Shown: positions 5,968-57,573 of the stretch, one piece after another
How positions within the stretch are numbered: the first letter of the stretch is position 1
Layout of the letters: each line of letters begins with the position of its first letter
Source of the DNA: Klugiella xanthotipulae
GTDB lineage: Bacteria > Actinomycetota > Actinomycetes > Actinomycetales > Microbacteriaceae
Length of the DNA: 64,000 bases
Assembly: GCF_006716695.1 (NCBI RefSeq)
Contig: NZ_VFPN01000004.1
Span: 62,001-126,000, forward strand
Direction: 5' to 3'
Notes under the pieces: generated by a model
What the model was told of the DNA's origin: nothing
The model's database searches: none
The model's input: only the letters and a program-made list of their open reading frames with translations
Program-made: the position numbers and the translations under genes

Positions 5968-5998
5968 CCCCGTTCGCGGACCGTCCGTGCGTCGCTTC

Positions 5999-6033
5999 GG
6001 GCGCGGGAACCTTCTGTTCCCGCGCCCGTTTGT
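5999..6033 (+). terminator. Rho-independent terminator
   Basis: A perfect 12-bp stem, GGGCGCGGGAAC / GTTCCCGCGCCC, with loop CTTCT, followed by GTTTGTG. It lies 31 bases after the oxidoreductase stop. Confidence 0.8.
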
Positions 6034-6244: not shown

Positions 6245-8914
6245 GTGAAAAGACTCTTATCCGTGCTGATCTCTGCCGTTGTGGTGGCCGGTTCGGTACT
6301 TATCGCTCAACCGGCTGCCGCCGCCGATGAGCTCACTATTCCCGATCCTCAGTTGCGGGCCTGCATCTCCGCCCACGCGGGTGGCACCCCGACCGCGGAA
6401 AATGTCACAAAAATCACCACGTTGTCATGCGCGCTGTTCAACGGAGATCGTATGCGCGATCCCTTCCCTGACTTCTATAGCCTGACCGGTCTTGAAGCCC
6501 TCACCAACCTGACATCACTTTATCTGTCGCGGGCGAGCGTCCCCTCGCTCGAACCGCTCGCAGGGCTGACGCAGCTCACCTCGATCACCCTCGGCCGCCC
6601 ATATACCGGCAGGGCACAATTGGGCGATCTCAGCCCGCTCGTCGGCTTAACCAATCTGGAGACCCTGGCCCTCTACGGAACGAGCCTCTACCCACGATAC
6701 GATGAGACGGCGGCGCGGTTCAGCGACCTGTCACCCCTGCGCGGCCTCACCAAGCTGAAGGTGCTCGCCCTCCCGTATGCCCAGGTGAAGGATGTGACCC
6801 CGCTCGCCGGACTCACCCAACTCACCGAGCTTCAGCTCAATAACAACCGCATTGAGGACGTCAGCCCGCTCGCAAACCTGCCCCAGTTGTCCTGGTTGTA
6901 CCTCTGGGAAAACCGGGTCACCGACCTCTCTCCGCTCGGCGACTCGTCGGCACCCCTCACCCGGTTGTGGACGGAACGTCAGAACCCAGAATTGCCCCCC
7001 GTCGCGATTAACACGGCCCAGGCCAACCCCATTCATAATCTGAGTGGTGCCACAATTGTGCCGACATCCGCTACCGCAACCTACGATTCGGTGGCCCACC
7101 AGTGGAGCTACGGCCAGACCGGTGACAACCAGCTCACCTGGCGCAATGAGCTTGACCGGGATCAGTTTGTGGGCAACTACTTCTCGGGAACCCTCTTCCA
7201 GAGGTCAGAGACCCACCAGAGCAGGTTCACCAGCCCACAGGTGGAGGCGTGTGTTCGGGAGAACCTGGGCCTCTCCGCGGAAGTGCGGATTTATCCCACA
7301 ATGCTTGCAAGAATTACCTCCCTGAATTGTGGGTCGCGGAGGATTACGGATATCACCGATATGGCCCAGCTGCCCAACGTGGTCACGCTGAATCTCGGTG
7401 ACAACTCGATCTCGGACCTGACCCCGCTGAGCACTCTGACGAGTCTGACCACGCTCAAGCTGGGCCGCAACCAGATCAGCGACCTCAGTGCCCTCGCCCC
7501 TCTGGTCAAGCTTGACCGCCTTGAGCTCAACAACAACTTTGTGCAAGACCTGGCCCCGCTGCAGGGGATGCGGCGTCTTGACCGCCTGTACCTCTGGGAA
7601 AACGAAATCTCCGACCTTTCCCCGCTCGGGTCGCACCACATTCTTCAGCTGTGGGTGGAGCGCCAATACGTTGCCCTTCCCGACTTGGCAGCGGGCGAGT
7701 CCCAGCCCAACCCCCTGGTGAACCGTGATGGTAGCCCGGTCGTTCCGGAGAACGTCGTATACGATGAGGCGTTCAACTCCTGGGGCTACTCCACAACGGG
7801 CCCCTCGCAGGTCGCCTGGCGGGCGCCCCTCGCTGGCGGGTTAGGGTATCCCGATTTCTTCTCGGGTACGGTCTCGCAAATAGCCACTGCGGACGAGGTC
7901 ACCTCATTTGCACCCGAGTTCACGGCCTGCCTCAACGAACTCCTCGGTCAGGAGCCGGATGCCCCGATTTACGTGACCCAGATCAAGAGAATCAGCACGC
8001 TGGACTGTTCCGACCGTGGGATCTCCTCGCTGAGCGGCATCACCGAGATGCCGCAGCTCGCCTCGCTCAACCTGAGCAACAACGACATCACCGATGTGAC
8101 GCTCCTGGGGCACCTCAGCGCGCTGACCACCCTGAACCTCAGCGGCAACGCGCTGGGCGATGTGGCTGCCCTGAACAGTCTCAGCGCCCTCACGGAACTT
8201 CGCCTGAACGACAACAGGCTGAGCGATATCTCGGCCCTGAGCGGTCTGGCCCAGCTGACCACCCTGAGCCTGGATGACAACCAGATTGTCGATCTGACCC
8301 GCGTGCCAAAGCTGGCGGGTCTGAAGACGCTCTCGCTCGTGGGCAACGGAATACATAACATCAAACCGTTGGGGGGCCTCACCGGGCTCACCACCGTGAA
8401 CCTGAGCGCCAACAACATCAGCGATATTTCGACGTTCTACGACCTGGATAGCGTGGCAACCCTTGACCTGAGCAGCAACGACATCACCGATATCACGCCA
8501 CTCAAAGATCTGAAGCCGCTGGCCGCGCTCAACCTCGCGGGTAACACGGTGGCTGACCTGGGCCCGCTCACCCGTCTCACCAGAATGACCTCCCTCAACC
8601 TGGAGGGCAACGCCGTGACGGATCTGCGCCCGCTCAACGGGTTGGCCAAGTTGGCTAGCCTCAACGTCGCCGAGCAGGCCGTGACCCTGGCAGATATTGC
8701 GGTCAACACCCCCCAGGCGAACATTCTCGCCGATAACGAGGGCTTCCGTATCCGGCCAACCTCCACCACGGCGACCTACGACGCGGCACCCAACGTGTGG
8801 ACGTTTGCCGAGGCGGGACGCCACACGCTGACCTGGACATCCGAGGTGATAATCGGTCAGGTGACGACTTCCTTCACGGGTACGATAACCCAGGTCGCAA
8901 CCCGGGCGGAGTGA
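6245..8914 (+). CDS. Secreted leucine-rich-repeat protein with three tandem LRR/Ig-like modules
   Basis: An 889-residue exported protein. Residues 1-27 are a signal peptide (VKRLLSVLISAVVVAG...AAAAD). The rest is one module repeated three times, starting near residues 30, 335 and 560. Each has a Cys-bounded cap (ACISAH...LSC, ACVREN...LNC, ACLNEL...LDC), a block of about 22-residue internalin-type LRRs (LxxLTxLxLxxNxIxDISPL), and an Ig-like segment ending in TxTxxTYD...W.Y...QLTW. LRR blocks of this type bind proteins, as in Listeria internalins. No LPxTG-like signal or terminal membrane helix is visible, so it is probably released. The start is GTG at 6245, preceded by GAGAGAG; a -10-like TATATT is at 6116-6121. 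The binding partner is unknown. Confidence 0.85.
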   Translation: MKRLLSVLISAVVVAGSVLIAQPAAAADELTIPDPQLRACISAHAGGTPTAENVTKITTLSCALFNGDRMRDPFPDFYSLTGLEALTNLTSLYLSRASVPSLEPLAGLTQLTSITLGRPYTGRAQLGDLSPLVGLTNLETLALYGTSLYPRYDETAARFSDLSPLRGLTKLKVLALPYAQVKDVTPLAGLTQLTELQLNNNRIEDVSPLANLPQLSWLYLWENRVTDLSPLGDSSAPLTRLWTERQNPELPPVAINTAQANPIHNLSGATIVPTSATATYDSVAHQWSYGQTGDNQLTWRNELDRDQFVGNYFSGTLFQRSETHQSRFTSPQVEACVRENLGLSAEVRIYPTMLARITSLNCGSRRITDITDMAQLPNVVTLNLGDNSISDLTPLSTLTSLTTLKLGRNQISDLSALAPLVKLDRLELNNNFVQDLAPLQGMRRLDRLYLWENEISDLSPLGSHHILQLWVERQYVALPDLAAGESQPNPLVNRDGSPVVPENVVYDEAFNSWGYSTTGPSQVAWRAPLAGGLGYPDFFSGTVSQIATADEVTSFAPEFTACLNELLGQEPDAPIYVTQIKRISTLDCSDRGISSLSGITEMPQLASLNLSNNDITDVTLLGHLSALTTLNLSGNALGDVAALNSLSALTELRLNDNRLSDISALSGLAQLTTLSLDDNQIVDLTRVPKLAGLKTLSLVGNGIHNIKPLGGLTGLTTVNLSANNISDISTFYDLDSVATLDLSSNDITDITPLKDLKPLAALNLAGNTVADLGPLTRLTRMTSLNLEGNAVTDLRPLNGLAKLASLNVAEQAVTLADIAVNTPQANILADNEGFRIRPTSTTATYDAAPNVWTFAEAGRHTLTWTSEVIIGQVTTSFTGTITQVATRAE

Positions 8915-8933
8915 CGGCGCTTAGCGCGCCGTC
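8913..8933. terminator. Bidirectional terminator hairpin across convergent stop codons
   Basis: GACGGCGC-TTAGC-GCGCCGTC, a perfect 8-bp stem. It includes the last bases of the LRR gene and the stop codon of the leftward DUF1648 gene, whose stops are only six bases apart. There is no T tract, so termination strength is uncertain. Confidence 0.45.
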
Positions 8934-9964
8934 GCCCCGTTTGTGTTGGCCTGTCTCTCGGCGTAACGGGTGAGCAGGGCGGCACCCGTCTGGGCATCCT
9001 CCACCGTGACCACAAAGGTGCGTCGGCCGTCGTTGCGCTCCACTTCGATGGAGCTCTCGTGGCTGAGGATGACCCCCCACCGGCGGTTACCGCCAAACCG
9101 CACCCCGTAGCCGCCAAAATCTGCCAGGGGATTCACCTCGTTGACGCTCACGGCGGCCACGGCCGATACGGGAATGCGGATGAGGGGCCAGCCCATCGCC
9201 GGGCGCGCCGTGAGCCCGTTCGGGGCCACCGTCACGCGCCACGACAGCGTGCCGAGTACGAGGGCAACGATGACGAGCGGGAGGAGCGCCTGCCACCACA
9301 TCTGCGGGTCGGTCATGAACATCACGGCCGAGGACACCACGAGCACGCCGCTGGTGCCGATCAGAAGCCACCAGATAGCCGGGGATGCGCTGAGATGCTG
9401 ACTCCAAACGGCGCGTTCCTCCCCCGCGAGCGGCAGCGCGGCGACCGCCTCACCGCGCACCGAGACGGGGCTAACCTGCGGCGCGAGCAGCGCCGCCAGC
9501 AGGCCACAGAAGAGTGCGATGACCGGTCCGGCCAGGAGAAAAACCGTGCTGTTGTGGGCGTGGACCTCGGCCGTGGTCAGCTCCACCTGGCTGATCGTGG
9601 ACCCCGCGATCAGGATGCTGATAAAAACGGAGGACCACGTAGAGGTACCCACCATGAAACGGATCCACGCGGTACTCTGCCCGCGTAGGGCACCGTACCG
9701 GGTGCTGTAGTAGATCAGGGCGATGAGCCCACCGCCCACCACCGTGAGCAGCAGGATGGTGGTCCAGGGCGGTGCAAAACCGTCGGCCTGGCCGTCCGCC
9801 CCCCAATGGGTCGCTACCTCCGCGGGCAGCCGGGGCAGCGCAATCAGCATCGAGGTCACTGCCGCCACCACGAAGATGCCGGGCAGAACCAGCCCGGCAA
9901 AGAAGAGCTGACGTCTCTGGGTGGTGCTGAGGATGCGGCGGTGAGCCGGGTTGATCGGGGTCAT
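8921..9964 (-). CDS. DUF1648-type membrane protein
   Basis: A 347-residue membrane protein. The N-terminal part carries the DUF1648 pattern (LPAEVATHWGADGQADGF) after the first helix, with about six hydrophobic segments up to residue 250. The C-terminal 100 residues are soluble and beta-rich (VAPNGLTARPAMGWPLIRIP...GYGVRFGGNRRWGVILSHE), resembling a PH-like membrane-associated domain. Related SdpI-like proteins are linked to peptide-toxin immunity or signalling, but no function can be assigned here. The start at ATG 9964 follows AGGAG. It is transcribed alone, towards the LRR gene. Confidence 0.75.
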   Translation of the reverse strand: MTPINPAHRRILSTTQRRQLFFAGLVLPGIFVVAAVTSMLIALPRLPAEVATHWGADGQADGFAPPWTTILLLTVVGGGLIALIYYSTRYGALRGQSTAWIRFMVGTSTWSSVFISILIAGSTISQVELTTAEVHAHNSTVFLLAGPVIALFCGLLAALLAPQVSPVSVRGEAVAALPLAGEERAVWSQHLSASPAIWWLLIGTSGVLVVSSAVMFMTDPQMWWQALLPLVIVALVLGTLSWRVTVAPNGLTARPAMGWPLIRIPVSAVAAVSVNEVNPLADFGGYGVRFGGNRRWGVILSHESSIEVERNDGRRTFVVTVEDAQTGAALLTRYAERQANTNGATAR

Positions 9965-37216: not shown

Positions 37217-37801
37217 GTGACTTATCCAGAAGCTCCTCAATATTCCCCGCAGCCGTCACTGGTGCCGGTCGGTGCGGCTACCCCCGGTGATCTACGACTT
37301 CCGCTCTACGGGGCCACCTTCGGTCAGGCCGCCAGTCGTTTCGTGAAAAAGTATGCAACGTTTACCGGACGCTCCTCCCGCAGCGAATACTGGTGGGTTG
37401 TCCTCCTGAACTTCCTGCTTTCGTTGATTCCCACGGCGCTTGCCGTTATCGGTATCGTTATCGGTGCGAGCTACGCCGCAGCGAATCCTGTCAGTACCGT
37501 GATCGGCTATGACGCCGAAACCGGCGAGCCAGTAACGTATGAGAGCAGTAGTGGAATTATCAACTATGCGCCTGCAGCCGCACTCATCTTCATTGGCCTG
37601 GGGCTTCTCGTGTTGATCGGACTGGCCCTGATTATCCCCACTTACGCGCTGCTGTGGCGTCGCCTCCACGATGCCAATCTGCCCGGCCCATTGGCCCTTC
37701 TCACGCTCATTCCCACGGTGGGAGGAATTGCAACAATTATTATTGCGTTGCTTCCTTCTCGGCGGGAAGGTCAGCGCTACGACCTTCCCCCAGCGGTGTA
37801 G
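37217..37801 (+). CDS. DUF805 family membrane protein
   Basis: 194 residues from GTG 37217. The DUF805 hallmarks are present: FTGRSSRSEYWWVVLLN before the first helix, then LLWRRLHDANLPG between helices, and a final LLPSRREGQRY. About four transmembrane segments. An N-terminal Pro-rich cytoplasmic stretch of 30 residues precedes the domain. DUF805 proteins (YhaH/YhaI-like) are inner-membrane proteins without a settled function. Confidence 0.88.
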   Translation: MTYPEAPQYSPQPSLVPVGAATPGDLRLPLYGATFGQAASRFVKKYATFTGRSSRSEYWWVVLLNFLLSLIPTALAVIGIVIGASYAAANPVSTVIGYDAETGEPVTYESSSGIINYAPAAALIFIGLGLLVLIGLALIIPTYALLWRRLHDANLPGPLALLTLIPTVGGIATIIIALLPSRREGQRYDLPPAV

Positions 37802-38602
37802 CTGTCGGGAACGAAGGGGTGCACGTGCTGCCGAGCCTGGGTTACCGTCCGTGTGATGCGATTTTCTCCTGTGCGCCGGGAGAGGGTGACTTTAGTGGCT
37901 AAATTTCAGGACATTAACCCTTTGTGCTCCAAGTGATTCTCTAGTCTGACAAGTGTCGTTGTGAGCCGAGATTCTTCGGTAAAACAGCAGCCGTCAGCAA
38001 CTGAAAGGTCTGATCGTCCGTGATTTCCCGCAGCTATCGCCCGCGCATCTCAGGTGAGTGCGGTGGATTCGGGAATCCAGGGTGCTTCATCGCGGTTCCG
38101 GCGCGATGGGTCCCGCCAGGGGTGCGCTTCTCCGGTACCGTCGGCGAAGCGCACCCACCCCATAGCTCCGGGATCACTCATAGTCCGCTCCCCCCCTAGT
38201 GCCGTGAGTGATCCCGGTAACTCGTGATCGAGTTCGACCTCGGTTGGACCGTCACTGTACCTCGATGGTGAGGTCTCGTGCGTGAACCGCGAAAGGCGAC
38301 TCCCACAGACGGATTCTGTGGCTGAGTGGGAGTCGTCTCTCGCGGTTCACGCACGAGGATGCGCGAAAAAGAGGTCCGAGGAGGTGCCCCCCGCGGTGGG
38401 CGGGGCACTCGCAGATCTGGGAATCTCGCTTCCGCTCAGTGCGAATGTCTGAGGGTTAGAGCCTCGGGCGACTCCAAAAATCAAGCGGGTGTATCTGTCT
38501 GATTAAGCGTGTGGTGCTCTCCGGGTGAGTACAGGTGAGTTTCGGGACGAAAAAGCCCGGGATTTGACCCGTTTGGGGCCCCAAGCGGCATATGGTTACA
38601 GA
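37802..38602. other. Long non-coding region upstream of 6C RNA
   Basis: About 800 bases with no credible gene: frames here are short and cross the hairpins. Positions 38065-38408 carry a run of strong inverted repeats (separate entry). 38573-38584 is a perfect 12-base palindrome, TTGGGGCCCCAA, just upstream of the 6C RNA and perhaps part of its promoter. 37802-38060 shows no clear structure. Confidence 0.6.
38065..38408 (+). ncRNA. Hairpin-rich region, possible undescribed structured RNA
   Basis: Successive inverted repeats: GGATTC-GG-GAATCC (38065-38078); CATCGCG/CGCGATG (38088-38108); GGTGCGCTTC/GAAGCGCACC (38121-38155); CCGGGATCACTCA/TGAGTGATCCCGG (38168-38217) with seven C residues in the loop; an 18-bp perfect stem CTCGTGCGTGAACCGCGA (38275-38292 with 38340-38357) enclosing CGACTCCCAC/GTGGGAGTCG; and GTGCCCC/GGGGCAC (38384-38408). 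Within the large stem, CCACAGA/TCTGTGG (38303-38321) competes with the inner stem. The strand is arbitrary. No known RNA family was recognised; the C7 loop recalls 6C RNA. Confidence 0.5.
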
Positions 38603-38767
38603 CGTAACGACGAGCGCAACGCTCGTAACGTTACGGCGAAATATCCCCCCCTTTTGGCGGGCTTCTCACATCCCCCCCTAACGAGAAGCCCGCCAAATCC
38701 CCCCTACTCCGGGACCGCTCGGCGCTACCCCCAACCTTGCTTCCGAGCGGTCCCGGTTTGATTTTTG
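38603..38767 (+). ncRNA. 6C RNA
   Basis: This matches the actinobacterial 6C RNA: two hairpins with C-runs. Hairpin 1 is a perfect 15-bp stem (TTTGGCGGGCTTCTC, 38653-38667, with 38683-38697) with seven C in the loop. Hairpin 2 is a perfect 14-bp stem (CCGGGACCGCTCGG, 38709-38722, with 38743-38756) with five C in the loop, followed by TTTGATTTTT, an intrinsic terminator. C-runs also lie before and between the stems (38645-38651, 38699-38704). An extra 5' hairpin, CGTAACG-ACGAGCG-CAA-CGCTCGT-AA-CGTTACG (38603-38635), precedes them and may be part of the transcript; the start is uncertain. 6C RNAs act through their C-rich loops on G-rich mRNA sites. Confidence 0.9.
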
Positions 38768-38861
38768 CGTGGCGCAGTGGGAGTGCGACGGGTCTCCCAT
38801 CGTGAGTTCTCGGCTGTTACGACGGCCCGGGTGTCAGGGTTGTGGTGGGATAGCATTGAGT

Positions 38862-39278
38862 GTGACCCGAGAGAACTTATTGGGCGTGCCGCCCACGCTG
38901 TTACCCGTTGAAGCCGACGTTCTATCGGCTCTGGACCGGGGCGAACCCCTCACAGAGGTCGTCCGTTCGTATCCGGCGTCCTCATTGGCCTGGGCTCTTC
39001 TCGCAGATGAGGCGGATGCCGGGGGCCAGGTTCTTCCCGCATACGCCTACGCTCGCGTGGGTTATCACCGCGGGCTTGACGCGCTGCGGGGTGCCGGGTG
39101 GAAGGGGCACGGTCCCGTGCCGTGGTCACACGAACCGAACCGCGGAGTGCTCCGTTCGCTATATGCACTCCGCAGGGGGGCAGAACGTATTGGGGAGACC
39201 GCCGAGGTGGTGCGGCTCACCGAGTTTTTGCGTGGCGCAGACCCAGACGCGATATCGCGCATAGATGAGGGAGAATAA
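38862..39278 (+). CDS. DUF3151 family protein
   Basis: 138 residues from GTG 38862 (TTG 38856 is possible). The family pattern is clear: TRENLLGVPPTLLP, SSLAWALLADEA, AYAYARVGYHRGLDALRGAG and GPVPWSHEPNRG. DUF3151 is confined to Actinobacteria and has no known function. Its stop codon abuts the purA ATG without a gap, so the two are translationally coupled. The gene starts 95 bases after the 6C terminator. Confidence 0.9.
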   Translation: MTRENLLGVPPTLLPVEADVLSALDRGEPLTEVVRSYPASSLAWALLADEADAGGQVLPAYAYARVGYHRGLDALRGAGWKGHGPVPWSHEPNRGVLRSLYALRRGAERIGETAEVVRLTEFLRGADPDAISRIDEGE

Positions 39279-40565
39279 ATGCCTGCCGTACTGATTGTTG
39301 GTGCCCAGTGGGGCGACGAGGGCAAGGGTCGGGCCACCGACCTGCTCGGTAGCCGGGTGGAGTACGTCGTCAAGTTCAACGGCGGGAACAACGCCGGTCA
39401 CACGGTTGTGGTGGGCGATGAGAAGTATGCTCTGCACCTGCTGCCCTCCGGCATCCTGACCCCCGGCGTGGTTCCCATCATTGCCAACGGTGTTGTGGTT
39501 GACCTGGAGGTGCTCTTCCACGAGCTGGATGCGCTCAGTGCCCGCGGTGTCGATGTGTCCCGCCTGCGTGTGAGCGCCAATGCCCACGTCATCACGGCCT
39601 ATCACCGCACGCTCGATAAGGTAACAGAGCGCTTCCTGGGCAAGCGTCAGATCGGCACGACGGGGCGCGGTATTGGGCCGGCCTACGCCGACAAGATTAA
39701 TCGGGTGGGAATCCGTGTCCAGGATATTTTTGACGAGAATATCCTCCGTCAGAAGGTGGAGGGCGCACTTGAGCAGAAGAATCAGCTGCTCGTTAAGGTC
39801 TACAACCGCAGGGCTATCGAGGTTGACGAGGTCGTGGCTGACCTCCTCTCCTACGCCGAGCGCCTGCGACCGATGGTGAGCGATACCTCGCTGGAGATCA
39901 ATACCGCGCTTGATGCGGGTAAAACCGTGTTGTTTGAGGCTGGTCAGGCCACCATGCTGGATGTTGACCACGGCACGTACCCGTTTGTCACCTCCTCCAA
40001 TGCCACGGCGGGTGGGGCCGCGACGGGCTCGGGTATTGCGCCCGCCCGGATTGAGCGCGTGATCTCGGTGATTAAGGCGTACACCACCCGGGTGGGCTCG
40101 GGGCCGTTCCCCACCGAACTCTTTGACGAGTCGGGTGAGTATCTGCGCGATAACGGCTTCGAGTTTGGCACCACAACGGGCCGCCCGCGCCGCTGCGGCT
40201 GGTACGACGCCCCGATTGCGCGGTACAACTCGCGTATCAATGGCGTGACCGACTACGTGTTGACCAAGCTTGACGTGCTCTCGGGCTTGGAAACAATCCC
40301 GGTGTGTGTGGCCTACGAGGTTGACGGGGTGCGCCATGATGAGGTGCCCGTGAATCAGACGGACTTCCACCACGCGACCCCTATTTACGAGGATTTTCCT
40401 GGCTGGTCGGAGGACATTACGGGCTGTCGTGACTTTGCGGATCTGCCCGAGAACGCGCAGAAGTACATTCGCACGCTGGAGCAGATGAGCGGCGCGCGCA
40501 TTTCCGCGATCGGGGTTGGCCCCGAGCGCGAGCAGGTTGTTGTTCTGCACGATCTGCTCGGTTAG
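39279..40565 (+). CDS. purA: Adenylosuccinate synthetase
   Basis: 428 residues, full length for the family. It joins IMP and aspartate with GTP to give adenylosuccinate, the committed step to AMP. The P-loop GDEGKG (12-17), the following [10 protein letters not shown], the [14 protein letters not shown] motif and [11 protein letters not shown] are all intact. The normal GDEGKGK reads GDEGKGR here, a conservative change. It is coupled to DUF3151. Confidence 0.97.
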
Positions 40566-40573
40566 CTCTGTGG

Positions 40574-54194: not shown

Positions 54195-54241
54195 AACCAC
54201 AACGGGTGCTGTCCCTCTCCGGGGCGGCACCCGTTGTGGTT
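54195..54241 (+). terminator. Terminator hairpin after the adhesin
   Basis: AACCACAACGGGTGC pairs perfectly with GCACCCGTTGTGGTT (15 bp, loop 17 bases), starting 13 bases after the stop. Confidence 0.7.
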
Positions 54242-57527: not shown

Positions 57528-57573
57528 CACAGCAGCGGATATCGTCCTCCACGGGGCGGCATCCGCTGCTGTG
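57528..57573 (+). terminator. Terminator hairpin after the M60 peptidase
   Basis: CACAGCAGCGGAT pairs perfectly with ATCCGCTGCTGTG (13 bp, loop 20 bases), starting ten bases after the stop. No T tract follows. Its loop (CCTCCACGGGGCGG) resembles that of the adhesin terminator. Confidence 0.6.

What the first reader, a model, noticed from the sequence alone, without database searches (positions are those of the whole stretch)
38065..38408. Run of six hairpins upstream of 6C RNA: possible undescribed structured RNA
Over about 340 bases there are inverted repeats with perfect stems of 6, 7, 10, 13 and 18 bp, one having seven C in its loop. The 18-bp stem encloses two competing inner stems (CGACTCCCAC/GTGGGAGTCG against CCACAGA/TCTGTGG), the layout of a structural switch. 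There is no coding potential, and I do not match it to RNase P, tmRNA, SRP RNA or a riboswitch I know.
Basis: seen in the sequence. Interest (0 to 1): 0.6.

Follow-up and report, generated by a model that had tools for sequence, protein, structure and literature searches.

The report
Twin C-loop RNA hairpins, plus giant hairpin
A long gene-free gap in a Microbacteriaceae genome holds what looks like two diverged copies of a small hairpin RNA with runs of C in its loops, resembling known bacterial gene-silencing RNAs, plus one unusually long hairpin; the structure is real, but it is a modest variation on a known theme and its function is unproven.

Summary
The hairpins are real and beyond chance: four of the five lowest folding z-scores among 913 windows of the 64 kb lie in this gap. 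But a single six-hairpin switch RNA is not supported. They look like two copies of one C-rich-loop RNA; only the downstream copy has a U-tract. (2) That RNA is not a proven 6C: 28.8 bits against 47; the syntenic 6C lies elsewhere in this genome with CCCC loops. (3) The 32-nt-arm hairpin is the window's strongest and single-copy; its 'competing' stems differ only at the tip (-65.2 against -62.2 kcal/mol). Best reading: a lineage-specific pair of C-rich-loop sRNAs that would pair with G-rich ribosome-binding sites, as reported for 6C/B11, with the giant hairpin as a possible U-less terminator. No promoter was found; expression, targets and conservation are untested.

The parts
38065..38078 (.). 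H1, GGATTC/GAATCC palindrome with a 2-nt loop; probably incidental
38080..38114 (+). H2, hairpin with 7-bp core CATCGCG/CGCGATG; lies just before H3, as hairpin a does before hairpin b downstream (positional likeness only)
38110..38222 (+). Unit 1: diverged copy of the C-rich-loop RNA (H3, 11-nt linker, H4); no U-tract
   Evidence: SW 44 against shuffle mean 20.9, 0 of 1000; structure-keeping shuffles 2 of 5000 and 0 of 5000; five pairs changed on both sides
38120..38156 (+). H3, first hairpin of unit 1 (no C run in its loop)
38168..38217 (+). H4, second hairpin of unit 1, 13-bp perfect stem, CTCCCCCCCTAG in its loop
38275..38357 (.). H5, hairpin with 32-nt arms, strongest in the window, single copy in the genome; possible U-less terminator of unit 1
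38384..38408 (.). H6, GTGCCCC/GGGGCAC hairpin
38603..38635 (+). Hairpin a before unit 2 (7+7 bp with AA bulge)
38643..38767 (+).
38653..38697 (+). Hairpin b, 15-bp perfect stem, loop ACATCCCCCCCTAAC
38709..38756 (+). Hairpin c, 14-bp perfect stem followed by a U-tract: intrinsic-terminator-like
37217..37801 (+). DUF805 protein gene, upstream flank
38868..39278 (+). DUF3151 protein gene (conserved part), downstream flank, followed by purA 39279-40565

Best explanation
The flagged stretch contains the upstream, diverged copy (unit 1, 38110-38222) of a two-stem C-rich-loop small RNA whose better-equipped copy (unit 2, 38643-38767) lies 0.5 kb downstream. Inferred mechanism: each copy is transcribed on the + strand as a short RNA; rigid GC-rich stems display C6-C7 runs in loops and linker; these pair with G-rich ribosome-binding sites of mRNAs and block translation, as reported for 6C/B11 and, with a UCCC motif, for LhrC. 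Unit 2 ends at its own U-tract; unit 1 lacks one and may end at the giant hairpin H5, in the style of the U-less hairpins that follow genes in this window. Shown here: the stems, the likeness of the two units, the both-sided changes, the C runs, the U-tract. Inferred: transcription, strand, pairing with mRNAs, the role of H5.
For: Likeness: SW 44 against dinucleotide shuffles mean 20.9, sd 3.5, max 38, 0 of 1000 as high; the five best of 3181 window positions that do not overlap unit 2 are all over unit 1, and the best place elsewhere scores 33. With stems kept paired but shuffled: 2 of 5000; with unpaired parts kept as they are: 0 of 5000. Both linkers are 11 nt (coordinates). Of 29 pairs, 19 are the same in both units, 5 changed on both sides, none on one side only, 4 unpaired in unit 1, 1 gapped there. 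TCCCCCCCTA occurs 5 times in the whole genome: two are these hairpin loops, three lie within long ORFs. C6+ runs on the + strand: 5 of 19 in the window are in the gap, p 8e-6, four of them in the two units and one in H6. A covariance model of the two units finds only these two places, and one hairpin's own complement, in the genome at E<=10. Mechanism by analogy: B11/6C C-rich loops repress through a G tract in a 5'UTR (PMC10470900, passages); [quoted passage not shown]
Against: No promoter was found on either strand by two scans, though these scans also show none for the DUF3151 gene. The flanks upstream of the two units are not significantly alike (147 of 1000 shuffles). Unit 1 has lost the C run of its first loop and the U-tract. 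With two sequences the both-sided changes reach only 17 of 500 in the column-shuffle control, and template-switch repair of palindromes could mimic them (recalled). Folding does not choose a strand: z is stronger on the - strand, and the only two terminator-like sites are on the - strand (expected 1.0). Counting C and G runs together, 5 of 41 are in the gap, p 4e-4, weaker than C alone. No relative carries the pair. No exact 10-nt target lies just before an ORF start: the three TAGGGGGGGA sites outside the gap fall within ORFs.
Confidence: 0.45

Rival explanations
1. Unit 1 is an unexpressed relic of a tandem duplication; its stems stay paired because replication template-switching corrects inverted repeats, and only unit 2 is a functional RNA.
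For: Unit 1 lacks the U-tract and the first C loop; no promoter found; H3, H4 and H5 are all perfect or nearly perfect palindromes.
Against: The C run sits in the other loop (C7, against C5 in unit 2) rather than having decayed everywhere.
Confidence: 0.25
2. The hairpins, H5 above all, are transcription terminators or insulators (U-less type), not a regulatory RNA.
For: Other top hairpins of the window (54195, 57528, 5998, 40569) start 3-30 bp after gene stops, and one at 8898 overlaps a convergent gene end, without TTTT in the next 12 nt (the one at 40569 falls inside the next gene of that rough model); long hairpins also precede DUF3151 in some relatives, e.g. 25 bp in L006.
Against: H3, H4 and H5 lie 318, 366 and 472 bp beyond the DUF805 stop and have loops of 7, 24 and 19 nt, where those five have 4-6; terminators do not explain the C runs or the likeness of the units.
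Confidence: 0.2
3. One long structured RNA covering all hairpins, with H5 as a switch.
For: No U-tract after any hairpin on the + strand before 38756, by reading; strong overall folding.
Against: The alternative stem slips only the tip at a cost of 3 kcal/mol; unit 1 resembles a separate unit.
Confidence: 0.06
4. A REP/MITE/PATE-like mobile palindrome.
For: Long single hairpin H5 in an intergenic gap.
Against: Single copy in the genome; in the 58 other genomes only two short matches, which read as coding; no Y1 (REP-type) transposase found in the genome.
Confidence: 0.04

Closest known systems
6C RNA / B11 (Rfam RF01066)
   Same: Actinobacterial, two stem-loops, runs of about six or more C in loops, GC-rich stems
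   Different: 28.8 of 47 bits, with the stem of the first 6C hairpin missing from the match; no TTCCCCCCAA motif, which 26 of the 30 best family 6C matches have twice and 29 at least once; extra C run in the linker; other locus, the syntenic 6C being elsewhere
LhrC of Listeria
   Different: No sequence relation tested; other phylum; the five LhrC copies are nearly identical, these two are diverged
Streptomyces C-rich-loop sRNAs scr5583 and scr1434; Caulobacter GsrN
   Same: C-rich loop; GsrN pairs with a G tract in the katG leader (PMC3765725 and PMC5869019, passages)
   Different: No homology tested; other organisms and architecture
Extra 6C copies in mycobacteria
   Same: More than one C-rich two-stem RNA per genome (PMC9569102, passages)
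   Different: Those keep 6C-like structures, on chromosomes and plasmids; here the two units lie 0.5 kb apart and fall below the 6C cut-off

Membership tests
6C RNA (RF01066) | Score at or above the Rfam gathering cut-off (47 bits) | tested here: not met
   Unit 2 28.8 bits; unit 1 not listed at E up to 10. Weak as a criterion in this family: only 5 of 150 family genomes reach the cut-off
6C RNA (RF01066) | Two adjacent hairpins, each with about six C in the loop | tested here: inconclusive
   Unit 2: C7 and C5 loops plus C6 linker; unit 1: only the second loop has C7
6C RNA (RF01066) | Usual place next to acs and a TadA-like ATPase gene (a habit, not a definition; extra copies elsewhere are known) | tested here: not met
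   Seen for L035, L036; in G000 that locus is on contig C2 with CCCC loops, and G003 has like loops before its TadA-like gene
C-rich-loop antisense sRNA (6C/LhrC/GsrN type, functional class) | Unpaired C run that pairs with G-rich sites of mRNAs | not testable with these tools
   C runs in predicted loops; targets not shown (searches found no exact 10-nt site just before an ORF start)
C-rich-loop antisense sRNA (6C/LhrC/GsrN type, functional class) | Discrete expressed transcript with promoter and terminator | tested here: inconclusive
   Hairpin plus U-tract for unit 2; no promoter found; expression not testable
REP/PATE/MITE | Multiple copies, or a Y1 transposase in the genome | tested here: not met
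Riboswitch / attenuator | Mutually exclusive folds, or a known aptamer | tested here: not met
   No Rfam hit at gathering score; the alternative H5 fold shares the outer stem

The most novel reading that the evidence does not exclude
In one Microbacteriaceae lineage the ancestral 6C RNA has lost its long C runs (4C loops in G000 and G003) and its C-loop function has been taken over in G000 by an unrelated, locally duplicated pair of C7-loop RNAs whose two copies carry different sets of C runs, one of them ended by an extreme 32-nt-arm U-less terminator.
Probability: 0.15. Interest if true: 0.6.

Novelty: new variant of a known kind. Interest (0 to 1): 0.38.

Why it matters
6C is widespread in Actinobacteria and is reported to act through its C-rich loops; a lineage where its loops are shortened while another C-loop RNA pair exists would be a natural test of whether a C run in a rigid loop is by itself the functional unit.

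Tried and rejected
Switch idea: tested by constrained folding, rejected. Mobile element: own-genome copies, 58 other genomes and Y1 transposase, rejected. DNA matches in plasmids and phages: none. The two foreign matches (L003, 39 bases; L004, 27 bases) read by eye as coding sequence (not tested further). Hidden protein: ten short ORFs of the gap have no Pfam match. Orthologous gap: upstream of DUF3151 in 46 loci (29 family genomes, 17 named; at least one species is in both) there is no hairpin with C6 in its loop; 5 of the 46 (L019, L021, L026, L068, L081) have a C6 run somewhere in 1.5 kb. One search did this on loci not turned for minus-strand matches and is void for those. Covariance model R1 over 398 family genomes (own included, strict filters): 13 of 398 at E<=1, own included; best other 31.8 bits (E 2.7e-6), a single hairpin with C8 loop between two facing ORFs (L088), so not a copy of the pair; next 24.6 (L089) and 20.6 bits (L090). 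Of the loci L089-L100 I looked at L089-L093 and L095 and read them as chance; the rest I did not view. Duplication of the upstream flanks: not significant. Exact targets TAGGGGGGGA: none just before an ORF start.

Full report
Setting. The window is G000:C4:62001-126000 of a 2.98-Mb genome. I take it as Microbacteriaceae because contig G112:C82 of its family has the length (137148 bases) and DUF3151 position of the Subtercola vilae contig of L068; that Subtercola belongs to Microbacteriaceae is recalled. No other genome of the genus is held. The finding lies in a 967-bp gap between a DUF805 gene (37217-37801) and a DUF3151-purA pair (conserved part 38868-39278; 39279-40565), families confirmed.

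Observation. The 361-nt stretch folds far better than shuffles on both strands (z -6.95 and -8.92, 0 of 100 each), so folding does not choose a strand. In a scan of 913 windows over the 64 kb, four of the five lowest z-scores are in this gap. Of the 16 hairpins with score 14 or more, five are here (p 3e-6), and H5 is the first of all 1042. The gap also holds 5 of 19 + strand C runs of six or more (p 8e-6), or 5 of 41 C and G runs together (p 4e-4). The cut-offs were chosen after seeing the region, so these p values are descriptive.

What it is. The middle two hairpins, H3 and H4, align with the two hairpins of the C-rich RNA downstream over their whole length: score 44 against a shuffle mean of 20.9 and maximum of 38 (0 of 1000); elsewhere in the window the best is 33. 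Because palindromes inflate such scores I repeated the test with shuffles that keep the stems paired: 2 of 5000 reach 44, and 0 of 5000 when unpaired parts are kept as they are. Taken singly the first arms are only weakly alike (p 0.016), the second arms better (p 0.001). Both units have an 11-nt linker between the hairpins. Of 29 pairs, 19 are the same in both, 5 differ on both sides and still pair, none differs on one side only, 4 are unpaired and 1 gapped in unit 1; with two sequences this is modest support (17 of 500 column shuffles as good; slid versions give 0-2). The 10-mer TCCCCCCCTA occurs five times in the genome: twice in these loops, three times within long ORFs. The flanks before the two units are not significantly alike (147 of 1000). 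A covariance model of both units finds no third copy in the genome.

The neighbour is not a proven 6C RNA. Rfam gives 28.8 bits where 47 are needed, without the stem of the first 6C hairpin. With RF01066, 114 of 150 family genomes (own included, strict filters) have a match at E<=10, 5 of them over the cut-off, so family 6C also mostly misses the cut-off; score alone is weak evidence. But the letters differ: of the 30 best family matches, 26 carry TTCCCCCCAA twice and 29 at least once, unit 2 never. In the two 6C loci whose ORFs I listed (L035, L036) it lies between acs and a TadA-like ATPase gene (names recalled from the translations). The same locus in G000 (L083) has two loops with only CCCC, and G003 (L101) shows like loops before its TadA-like gene; cmscan at E<=1 finds no 6C in either. 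For G000 one search listed only a 21.4-bit match on contig C1, neither unit 2 nor L083.

H5. Its two 'competing' inner stems share the outer stem; forcing CCACAGA/TCTGTGG costs 3.0 kcal/mol. It is single-copy, with no REP-type transposase found in the genome, and no convincing copy in 58 other genomes. In this window long hairpins without U-tracts follow gene stops within 3-30 bp (gene model by codon composition, 46 genes, approximate), so a U-less terminator is the likeliest role, possibly for unit 1, which lacks a U-tract and whose H4 ends 57 nt before H5. This is inference.

Mechanism. By analogy: B11, the mycobacterial 6C, represses through a G tract in a 5'UTR, either loop being enough (PMC10470900, passages); GsrN pairs its C-rich loop with the katG leader and activates (PMC5869019, passages), so the sign of the effect cannot be read from the C run; [quoted passage not shown] Runs longer than six are known in 6C itself: eight C in Corynebacterium glutamicum, where its function was then unknown (PMC4046766, passages). 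Extra 6C copies are known in mycobacteria (PMC9569102, passages). My searches showed nothing on this locus: (Microbacteriaceae, small RNA, hairpin, intergenic) found 0 papers, and the listings show none by title or abstract start.

Against it. No promoter was found by a sigma-70 scan or by a laxer actinobacterial one, neither of which finds one for DUF3151 either. The two terminator-like sites are on the - strand (expected 1.0). No relative has the pair: of 398 family genomes only the own one matches 38500-38780 by DNA (two candidates per genome scored), and beyond the own genome R1's best is a lone C8-loop hairpin. So conservation, the usual test of an RNA, is absent or untestable here.

Verdict. 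Real, strongly structured, non-coding; two likely copies of a C-rich-loop RNA plus one extreme hairpin; a variant of a known kind; function plausible but unproven.

Noticed in passing
L083 (G000:C2, about 656 kb) and L101 (G003): The 6C-like RNA at the usual 6C place before the TadA-like gene has loops of only CCCC in this genome and in G003, unlike the C6 loops of the best-scoring family members.
   Followed up: partly
L088 (G064:C1:646844-646908): A hairpin between two facing ORFs (they read like DUF3145 and fabF, recalled) has the loop ACATCCCCCCCCAAAC, almost that of hairpin b.
   Followed up: partly
window 54195-54241, 57528-57573, 8898-8948, 5998-6028: Long hairpins without U-tracts sit 10-30 bp after gene stops or over a convergent gene end: perhaps the terminator style of this genome.
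   Followed up: partly
window 38569-38588: Near-perfect palindrome (90% complementary arms) upstream of hairpin a of unit 2, next to TTGACC at 38564: possible operator or promoter.
   Followed up: no
window 38393-38377 and 38003-37988 (- strand): Two terminator-like sites on the - strand (1.0 expected by chance): possible antisense transcription.
   Followed up: no
L078 (WNZI01000008.1): A contig labelled Vibrio cholerae encodes a DUF3151-like protein (56% identical to the window's), otherwise found here in Actinobacteria: probably contamination or a mislabelled record.
   Followed up: no
L014 325-431: A hairpin of 40 bp with 3 mismatches lies 1.2 kb upstream of DUF3151 in another family member, G082.
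   Followed up: no
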